Assembly (NCBI GenBank): GCA_026981635.1
Contig: JALSIF010000003.1
Coordinates: forward strand, 1 to 7,074
From: a bacterium
Lineage (GTDB): Bacteria; 4484-113; JALSIF01
Length of the DNA stretch: 7,074 nt
Reading direction: 5' to 3'
Position 1 is the first letter of the stretch; every line of letters begins with the position of its first letter. Both the position numbers and the translations under genes were made by a program. This document shows, one piece after another, positions 3,134-5,287 of the stretch. The notes beneath the pieces are model-generated. The model did no database searches, was not told the DNA's origin, and saw only the letters and a program-made list of their open reading frames with translations.

Positions 3134-3403
3134 TTGGGCTCCCTTTTTAGAGCGGTGCTGGAGACCGACTGGGGGGGCTACTTCCTCAGCCGGCGGATGC
3201 TTTTTTTCCTCATGGCCCTGGGGGTGATACTGGTGGCGGTTGGGGTGCGCGACCTTATCCGCCGGCGGCTGGTGAGGCCCGAGTTTCGGGTAAGCCCGCT
3301 CGTTCCCCTTCTCTTCCTGGGGATTGGGATAGCGGCGGTGGCGCTGAGCGTCTTCTGGCTGCTGAGGGAGTTTCCCGAGCTTCGGGCGCTTATCTTCGGC
3401 TAG
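3134..3403 (+). CDS. Small two-helix membrane protein, function unknown
   Basis: The 89-residue product has two strong hydrophobic segments, about residues 22-38 and 53-77. They are separated by a basic loop (RDLIRRRLVR), which should face the cytoplasm. I cannot assign a family. The start is uncertain. TTG at 3134 is the first possible codon after an in-frame stop at 3119-3121; GTG at 3155 and ATG at 3197 are alternatives, the last directly before helix 1. None has a convincing Shine-Dalgarno. A TAAAAT hexamer at 3119-3124 lies 9 nt before the TTG, which would suit a leaderless transcript. The gene converges on the CADD-like gene, and the two stop codons overlap in a CTAG. Confidence 0.6.
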   Translation: MGSLFRAVLETDWGGYFLSRRMLFFLMALGVILVAVGVRDLIRRRLVRPEFRVSPLVPLLFLGIGIAAVALSVFWLLREFPELRALIFG

Positions 3404-4116
3404 GCCCGGGCGCCCTGGCCGGTCTCTTCCATCAGGTGGGGGCAGAAGGCCTGGCAGATGGCGGAAAGGAGCGACCAGGCCGCCTCGGCCCCCTCTTCGG
3501 CGGCCCGCTCGGCCTCCGCGGCATCCTCCGGAGTCTGGATTAGGCTGGCGATAAGCTCAAGCTCCTCCTCCCGGTGGCGTATATCCGCCTCCTGGTGGAC
3601 CCTGAAGTAGGCGGTGGTCTTGGGGTCGGTGATGCCGAAGTATTCCCTGAGCCCCTCAAGCTTTGCCGCGCTCACTTCGGGGATCTGGCTCTCGTAGGCA
3701 TAGAGGGCGGCCAGGCCCGAGAGGGGCGAGCGGGCTGAGAGGCCGCGAAACTTGGCCACCGCCTGCCTCACTCCGATGAGGCCCGGGTTCTGCCTCACCC
3801 GCTCCCGGTCAAGCCCCAGCCCCTCGGCGAAGTCCAGCCAGAGGGTGAGGTGATCGGGGACCCCGTCCGCCCCCAGGTCCTCCTCCACCAGATTTCTTAG
3901 CACCACCTGGCGGAGCTCCGGGTCATCCAGCCCGGCGTGGACCAGACTGAGGTAAGTGGGGAAGGCACGCACATGGACGTAGTACTCGCGGGCGTAGCCG
4001 CAAAGCTCGTCCAGGCTGAGCCTGCCCGCACTCCATGCCTGGTAGAAGGGGTGCTCAAGCATGGAGTAGGGCCGGATGGCGCGACTTAAAAGTGAGTGGA
4101 GCTCTCGCTTTTTCAT
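3400..4116 (-). CDS. CADD-like TenA/PqqC-fold dimetal protein, candidate p-aminobenzoate synthase
   Basis: This 238-residue all-helical protein belongs to the TenA/PqqC fold and most resembles Chlamydia CADD, an Fe/Mn oxygenase that makes p-aminobenzoate for folate from its own side chains. From memory of CADD, the six metal ligands are all present here: E79 and H89 (EEDLG...DHLTLW), E142 (YESQIP), and H174, D178 and H181 (HQEADIRH). The residues CADD consumes, Tyr27 and Lys152, correspond to Y25 (LEHPFYQAW) and K152. The motifs are seen directly; the alignment to CADD is by recall. The activity is inferred, and a TenA- or PqqC-type role remains possible. The gene starts 25 nt after htpX ends, so the two are probably co-transcribed. 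The leader has only a moderate SD (GGGAGA, about 8 nt before the ATG). Its stop overlaps that of the convergent gene at 3401-3403. Confidence 0.9.
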   Translation of the reverse strand: MKKRELHSLLSRAIRPYSMLEHPFYQAWSAGRLSLDELCGYAREYYVHVRAFPTYLSLVHAGLDDPELRQVVLRNLVEEDLGADGVPDHLTLWLDFAEGLGLDRERVRQNPGLIGVRQAVAKFRGLSARSPLSGLAALYAYESQIPEVSAAKLEGLREYFGITDPKTTAYFRVHQEADIRHREEELELIASLIQTPEDAAEAERAAEEGAEAAWSLLSAICQAFCPHLMEETGQGARA

Positions 4117-4141: not shown

Positions 4142-5287
4142 TCAGCCGCCGCCGGAGCCTGGCCCGGCAGTGGGGGGCAGGGGGAGGCCGGGGAGGGGGA
4201 GCTTCTGGCTGGGGATGGTGGTGCCGGGGAGGCCGGTTCCCCTGAGCAGGTCTTCCAGCCGCTCCCTGGCGGTGGCGGCCCCGGCCCGGCGCTCCTTTGC
4301 CGCCCTCTCCCTTGCCCTGCGGGCCTCGGCGATGAGCAGGCGGCGGCGCTCCGGCCAGTACTGCTTCCACTCCTCGGGGGTCATCCCGCGAAGCTTCCGG
4401 ATGCGCTCCTCAATGGGGGGGTGAGTGGAGAAGAGGTTTTCGGTCAGTTCCTTGCCGGAGAGGGGGGTGGCGATGAAGAGGGGGGCATAGGCTTCGCTTG
4501 TGAGATGCACCCGGTTGTCCAGCACGGCCAGCTTCTCCAGGGCGGAGGCGATCCCCTCGGGGTTGCGAGTGAGGGAGACGGCGGTGGCGTCGGCCATGTA
4601 TTCCCGCCGGCGGCTGACCGCAAAGTGGATGATGGCGGCAACCATGGGGGCAAGCACCAGCGCCACCAGGGCAAAAAGGAGCATGAGGGCGTTCCCCTGG
4701 CCTGAGCCCTTGCCCCGGCTGCGGCTGGAGCCGCCGCCCCAGTGGAGGGAGCGCCAGACCAGACGAACGAATATGTAGATGGCGGCGGCCAGCACCGCCG
4801 AGATGGTCATCACCAGGGTGTCACGGTTGTAGATGTGGGCAAGCTCGTGGGCCAGCACCCCCTCCAGCTCCTGGCGGTTTAGCCGCCTTACCAGCCCGGA
4901 AGTGACCGCTATCACCGCATCCTGGGGGGAGCGGCCGGTGGCGAAGGCGTTGGCCGCCTCCTCCTCCACCAGGTAGAGGCGGGGGACCTGGGGAAGGCCG
5001 GCGGCGATGCAGAGGCCCTCCAGGGTGTTGTGCAGGTGGGGAAACTCCTCCTTGGTGATGGGGCGGGCCCTGACTGAGCGCAGGGCAAGCTTTGGCCCCA
5101 TGAGGTAGGCACTTAGGCTTGAGGCGCCCGAGTAGAGGAAGGCAAAGCCGGCCAGCATATAGGCCTCCATCGGCTCAATCATGTAGCCGGCCAGCCAGGC
5201 CACCCCCACCAGGAGCAGGTTGAAGATCAGCAGCAGCAGGACCGTCTGGCGCAGGTTGCGGCGGATCTCGTCCTCAAAGAGAAGCAT
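4142..5287 (-). CDS. htpX: HtpX-like M48 membrane zinc metalloprotease with C-terminal extension
   Basis: HtpX is an integral membrane zinc endopeptidase that degrades damaged or misfolded membrane proteins, acting alongside FtsH. The 381-residue protein shows HELAH at 147-151 (zinc ligands H147 and H151, catalytic E148) and E229 in REYMADA as third zinc ligand. FSTHPPIEERI is at 286-296, as in the family. Membrane segments lie at about 15-34, 43-63, 157-176 and 200-222, in the standard layout, with a Gly/Ser-rich loop at 184-198. Typical HtpX ends just after FSTHPPIEERI. Here about 80 residues follow: a highly charged Arg/Glu/Ala helix (about 312-348), then a Pro/Gly/Leu-rich tail. The ATG at 5287 gives the expected N-terminus but has no Shine-Dalgarno. 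It is first gene of an operon with the CADD-like gene. Confidence 0.95.
   Translation of the reverse strand: MLLFEDEIRRNLRQTVLLLLIFNLLLVGVAWLAGYMIEPMEAYMLAGFAFLYSGASSLSAYLMGPKLALRSVRARPITKEEFPHLHNTLEGLCIAAGLPQVPRLYLVEEEAANAFATGRSPQDAVIAVTSGLVRRLNRQELEGVLAHELAHIYNRDTLVMTISAVLAAAIYIFVRLVWRSLHWGGGSSRSRGKGSGQGNALMLLFALVALVLAPMVAAIIHFAVSRRREYMADATAVSLTRNPEGIASALEKLAVLDNRVHLTSEAYAPLFIATPLSGKELTENLFSTHPPIEERIRKLRGMTPEEWKQYWPERRRLLIAEARRARERAAKERRAGAATARERLEDLLRGTGLPGTTIPSQKLPLPGLPLPPTAGPGSGGG

What the first reader, a model, noticed from the sequence alone, without database searches (positions are those of the whole stretch)
3400..4116. CADD-like protein outside Chlamydia keeps both self-sacrificed residues
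Besides the six metal ligands, the protein keeps Y25 and K152, matching the Tyr27 and Lys152 that Chlamydia CADD uses up to make p-aminobenzoate. The spacing of E142, K152, H174, D178 and H181 appears identical. This points to a non-canonical, possibly oxygen-dependent, single-protein route to the folate precursor in a GC-rich free-living-type bacterium. The alignment is from memory.
Basis: partly seen in the sequence, partly recalled or inferred. Interest (0 to 1): 0.65.

Follow-up and report, generated by a model that had tools for sequence, protein, structure and literature searches.

The report
CADD-type self-consuming p-aminobenzoate synthase
The gene encodes a bacterial version of a known enzyme that uses up parts of itself to make the folate building block p-aminobenzoate, in a genome with the later folate genes but no detectable standard genes for this step; it is a good new example of something already described.

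Summary
The minus-strand ORF at 3400-4116 (238 aa) is a genuine CADD-family protein: TIGR04305 241.8 bits (cut-off 200), closest PDB relatives CADD and NePabS, and an AlphaFold model (pLDDT 96.9) 1.3 Å from CADD over 213 residues. Both sacrificed residues (Y25, K152), the six metal ligands (E79, H89, E142, H174, D178, H181) and helper residues Y41, Y45 and W93 are present. Only the E79-H89 spacing differs (10 versus 7 in CADD), as in some other members. The genome (a MAG, 85% complete) has folP, folK and folC, no chorismate-binding enzyme, no pabA/trpG over cut-off, and only ilvE in the pabC family. Among 31 other CADD-bearing genomes no PabB was recognised: 16 lack the family, and the copies I could classify are TrpE or isochorismate synthase. 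It is not new: NePabS from free-living Nitrosomonas was characterised in 2025, that paper already lists Chloroflexi and Sphingomonas, and I find the family in many phyla. The small extra: Y141/Y170, the pair linked to Mn/Fe use, occurs here and in many soil-type lineages, but not in the sampled Rickettsiales or Coxiellaceae.

The parts
3400..4116 (-). CADD/PabS-type self-sacrificing p-aminobenzoate synthase, 238 aa
   Evidence: TIGR04305 241.8 bits, cut-off 200; phmmer to CADD 1rcw 2.6e-47 and 9pj4 1.2e-43; AF2 model pLDDT 96.9, Z 30.8 and 1.3 A to CADD
4042..4044 (-). codon of Y25, predicted sacrificed tyrosine (CADD Tyr27, NePabS Tyr25)
   Evidence: alignment; role from PMC11965152; coordinate computed from ORF start 4116
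3661..3663 (-). codon of K152, predicted sacrificed amino donor (CADD Lys152, NePabS Lys159)
   Evidence: alignment; invariant in 50/50
3850..3882 (-). E79 to H89: first two metal ligands and the loop that is 3 residues longer than in CADD
3574..3696 (-). Y141 to H181: remaining metal ligands E142, H174, D178, H181, with Y141 and Y170, the pair linked to Mn/Fe preference
   Evidence: meaning of Y141/Y170 from PMC11965152
4142..5287 (-). HtpX-like M48 metalloprotease gene directly upstream, same strand, 25-base gap; possibly cotranscribed, no known functional link to folate
   Evidence: PF01435 1.3e-35; HtpX models up to 296 bits, below their equivalog cut-offs

Best explanation
The protein is a self-sacrificing p-aminobenzoate synthase of the CADD/PabS family. 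A dimetal centre held by E79, H89, E142, H174, D178 and H181 activates O2 (inferred). A radical is passed through aromatic residues to Y25, whose side chain is cut off and oxidised to the carboxylate-bearing ring, and K152 gives the amino group, leaving a spent protein (overall reaction shown for CADD and NePabS, inferred here). The product feeds FolP in a genome that appears to lack the chorismate route. From Y141/Y170 I predict a preference for Mn/Fe over Fe/Fe (inferred from two characterised enzymes).
For: TIGR04305 above cut-off; the closest solved relatives are two proven pABA synthases; CADD fold at 1.3 A over 213 residues; all residues found essential in NePabS (Tyr25, Tyr41, Lys159) and those with strong effects (Tyr45, Trp99) are present at the equivalent places. 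Own genome: folP, folK, folC present, no Chorismate_bind, no pabA/trpG over cut-off, only ilvE. Among 31 CADD-bearing genomes 16 have no Chorismate_bind, and in 12 of the other 15 the best match of the protein is TrpE or isochorismate synthase, never PabB. In G041 CADD sits beside folB and a folK-folP gene.
Against: No assay. The MAG is only 85% complete and in 317 contigs, so absence of pab genes is not proof. Five same-class genomes (G002, G003, G005, G006, G009) have folP, folK and folC but neither Chorismate_bind nor any CADD-like protein found, so lack of pabB in this class does not by itself point to CADD. The gene is not next to folate genes here. In three CADD genomes the Chorismate_bind protein was not classified (L115, L124, and L122, read only in its TrpG-like part), and one TrpE (L114) slightly passes the pabB cut-off as well.
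Confidence: 0.9

Rival explanations
1. A CADD-family paralogue that keeps the residues but now acts on an external small molecule, like other HDO oxidases (BesC, UndA, PqqC-like).
For: The HDO superfamily is functionally diverse and the fold is shared. Some same-class genomes seem to live without either route.
Against: K152, Y25, Y41, Y45 and W93 are kept together; a non-CADD HDO (G056) and PqqC lack Y25 and K152 in the same alignment. No other pABA source is seen in the genome although folP is present.
Confidence: 0.05
2. The organism makes pABA by the standard chorismate route encoded in the unsequenced 15% of the genome, and the CADD protein is a second source or a backup.
For: 85% completeness, 317 contigs.
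Against: No Chorismate_bind in six of nine same-class genomes; of the three that have one, G001 and G007 are closest to TrpE and G008 was not classified; no PabB recognised in the other CADD-bearing genomes sampled.
Confidence: 0.08
3. A PqqC- or TenA-type enzyme wrongly called CADD.
For: Pfam match to TENA_THI-4 (71.9 bits) and a shared fold.
Against: PqqC model 64.1 bits against a cut-off of 240; CADD model over cut-off; PqqC differs at five of the six aligned ligand positions; CADD is best by Z and rmsd.
Confidence: 0.01

Closest known systems
CADD (CT610) of Chlamydia trachomatis, pABA synthase, Mn/Fe
   Same: All six ligands, Tyr27/Lys152 pair, Y141 and Y170, fold (Z 30.8, 39% identity)
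   Different: 3-residue longer E79-H89 loop and a longer C-terminal end; gene beside htpX rather than folate genes; no evidence of a host-cell role
NePabS (NE1434) of Nitrosomonas europaea, pABA synthase, Fe/Fe (PMC11965152)
   Same: Sacrificed Tyr25 and Lys159 and helper residues Tyr41, Tyr45, Trp99 have equivalents; similar C-terminal end in the alignment
   Different: NePabS has Phe at both metal-adjacent positions where the window has Tyr, and an extra loop of about 10 residues absent here
PqqC, TenA, BesC, UndA (other heme-oxygenase-like proteins)
   Same: Fold
   Different: PqqC and a non-CADD HDO aligned here lack Y25 and K152; TenA, BesC and UndA were compared by fold only

Membership tests
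CADD/PabS self-sacrificing pABA synthase (TIGR04305) | profile score above curated cut-off | tested here: met
   241.8 v 200 bits
CADD/PabS self-sacrificing pABA synthase (TIGR04305) | sacrificed Tyr (CADD 27) and Lys (CADD 152) | tested here: met
   Y25 and K152
CADD/PabS self-sacrificing pABA synthase (TIGR04305) | six dimetal ligands, three His and three carboxylates | tested here: met
   E79, H89, E142, H174, D178, H181, invariant in 50/50
CADD/PabS self-sacrificing pABA synthase (TIGR04305) | CADD fold | tested here: met
   Z 30.8, 1.3 A, 213 residues
CADD/PabS self-sacrificing pABA synthase (TIGR04305) | genome with folate genes but without PabB | tested here: met
   with the limit that the genome is 85% complete
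CADD/PabS self-sacrificing pABA synthase (TIGR04305) | makes pABA from its own residues | not testable with these tools
   needs a protein assay
CADD/PabS self-sacrificing pABA synthase (TIGR04305) | Mn/Fe or Fe/Fe metal use | not testable with these tools
   Y141/Y170 predict Mn/Fe (PMC11965152)
PqqC (TIGR02111) | profile score above curated cut-off | tested here: not met
   64.1 v 240 bits
TENA/THI-4/PQQC superfamily (PF03070) | Pfam match over cut-off | tested here: met
   71.9 v 22 bits; superfamily level only, and PF14518 scores higher (99.8)

The most novel reading that the evidence does not exclude
Mn/Fe-type pABA synthases (Tyr at both metal-adjacent positions) are widespread in soil-type lineages such as Acidobacteria, Verrucomicrobia, Armatimonadetes and Gemmatimonadota and in this bacterium, while the sampled Rickettsiales and Coxiellaceae homologues have Tyr/Phe; Mn/Fe use would then not be an adaptation to iron starvation inside a host, as PMC11965152 suggested.
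Probability: 0.35. Interest if true: 0.4.

Novelty: new member of a known kind. Interest (0 to 1): 0.22.

Why it matters
It adds a genome where the only visible pABA source is a protein that works once and is spent, tying folate supply to O2 and to continued protein synthesis. The Y141/Y170 pattern across lineages makes the metal-choice hypothesis testable outside Chlamydia. The enzyme type itself is already established.

Tried and rejected
(1) The longer E79-H89 loop as a new metal site: rejected, because six other homologues have the same spacing and the model keeps the fold. (2) PqqC or TenA identity: rejected. (3) Naming the phylum from ribosomal protein L2: the window's genome groups with its same-class genomes, not clearly with any named phylum sampled (a first run, missed the window's own protein). 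(4) The tree gave no resolved place for the window protein within CADD. (6) Gene neighbourhood as functional evidence: htpX upstream and a small ORF downstream say nothing about folate. (7) Rows L097 and L074 were left out of the alignment because their frames stop early.

Full report
What is there. The ORF at 3400-4116 (minus) is intact, 238 aa, ATG to TAG. It starts 25 bases after an htpX-like M48 protease gene on the same strand (4142-5287), and its end overlaps by 4 bases the end of a small convergent ORF (3134-3403, plus strand). The other window genes are an aconitase (cut by the window edge), a hypothetical protein, a DUF2231 membrane protein and a PpiC-type isomerase.

Identity. NCBIfam gives TIGR04305 (CADD family putative folate metabolism protein) at 241.8 bits, cut-off 200; PqqC reaches 64.1 of a required 240. 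Pfam gives Haem_oxygenas_2 at 99.8 bits. The nearest solved structures by sequence are CADD (1rcw, 2.6e-47; 8va9) and the '4-aminobenzoate synthase' 9pj4 (1.2e-43), whose sequence and peptides fit NePabS of Nitrosomonas europaea (my inference). An AlphaFold model from 50 homologues has pLDDT 96.9; its best structural matches are CADD entries (Z 30.8, rmsd 1.3 over 213 residues), ahead of PqqC (27.0, 2.4) and TenA (about 22).

Residues. Y25, K152 and the ligands E79, H89, E142, H174, D178 and H181 are invariant in 50 homologues from many phyla. Y25, Y41 and Y45 lie inside the search patterns, so only the others are an unbiased test. Residues equivalent to NePabS Tyr41 (essential), Tyr45 and Trp99 (strong effect) are also present (PMC11965152). 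The E79-H89 spacing is 10, not 7 as in CADD; seven of 50 rows have 10 and three have 9, so this is ordinary loop variation in the family.

Genome. The window is contig C3 of a 1.745-Mb MAG, 85.08% complete, in 317 contigs. It has folP (dihydropteroate synthase, TIGR01496 292.9 bits), folK and folC. It has no Chorismate_bind protein, no TrpG/PabA above cut-off, and its one Aminotran_4 protein is IlvE. TrpE is missing too, so tryptophan may be imported, or that part may be unsequenced. Absence in an incomplete MAG is not proof, but six of nine same-class genomes also lack the family.

Family-wide test. A scan of one genome for each of 84,980 species gave 311 stretches that encode a relative; the 80 kept come from Elusimicrobia, Acidobacteria, Myxococcota, Chlamydiae, Gemmatimonadota, Ignavibacteria, Planctomycetota, Verrucomicrobia, Armatimonadetes, SAR202, Rickettsiales, Nitrosospira, Sphingomonas and others. 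Of 31 such genomes, 16 have no Chorismate_bind, 13 have one and two have two. In 12 of the 15 with a match the best NCBIfam model is TrpE or isochorismate synthase, never PabB; two of these (L123, L125) match TrpE best but below its cut-off, and L128 matches isochorismate synthase below its cut-off. Three (L115, L122, L124) were not classified. Among 65 other genomes of the sample (no TIGR04305 match over cut-off), 38 have two or more Chorismate_bind proteins (counts). Fisher's test of 2 of 33 against 38 of 65 gives p about 2e-7, with genomes treated as independent, which overstates it. This fits CADD replacing PabB.

Mechanism. For CADD and NePabS the literature shows (PMC11965152, PMC13108848): O2 and a reduced dimetal centre, cleavage of the tyrosine side chain leaving glycine, both carboxylate oxygens from O2, and the lysine as the source of nitrogen. 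Radical transfer from the metals to the tyrosine is proposed there. For the window protein all of this is inference from residues, fold and genome. The metal prediction uses Y141/Y170: Tyr at both positions in CADD (Mn/Fe), Phe at both in NePabS (Fe/Fe). In 50 rows the pair is YY in 19, YF in 28 and FF in 3. The YY rows include the window, Chlamydiae, and many Acidobacteria, Verrucomicrobia and Armatimonadetes; the Rickettsiales and Coxiellaceae rows are YF. What YF enzymes use is unknown; the NePabS F148Y variant, which has that pair, used either metal set.

Tree. CADD rows are parted from PqqC and other HDOs by very long branches, but the root and deep forks are weak and the window's place within CADD is unresolved.

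Verdict. The kind of enzyme and its occurrence in free-living bacteria were already known (PMC11965152, which also cites earlier rescue of an E. coli delta-pabABC strain by NE1434), so this is a new member of a known kind.

Noticed in passing
L004 1465-2097 (+), L005 1474-2085 (-), L007 1483-2073 (-), L008 1462-2103 (-): A short CADD-like clade (about 200 aa, TIGR04305 90-113 bits by hmmscan for two of them, below cut-off) in three same-class genomes and one other keeps the Y25, Y41, Y45, W93, E142 and K152 equivalents but has Glu at the H181 ligand, mostly Asn at D178, and a shortened segment before the H89 equivalent. No PabB was recognised in G001, G004 and G007. Whether it makes pABA is open.
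   Followed up: partly
G002, G003, G005, G006, G009 (same class as the window): These genomes have folP, folK and folC, but no Chorismate_bind and no CADD-like protein was found; their pABA source is unexplained.
   Followed up: partly
L001 1100-2163 (G041): CADD gene followed on the same strand by folB and a folK-folP gene, a folate cluster in a genome without Chorismate_bind.
   Followed up: partly
window 3134-3403: A small hydrophobic ORF of 89 aa without family match ends convergently with the CADD gene, overlapping its end by 4 bases.
   Followed up: no
L097 4983-5078 and L074 133-159: In a Rickettsiaceae MAG (L097) and an Ignavibacteria MAG (L074) the CADD frame meets an early stop within the tblastn match; this may be decay or a sequencing error.
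   Followed up: no
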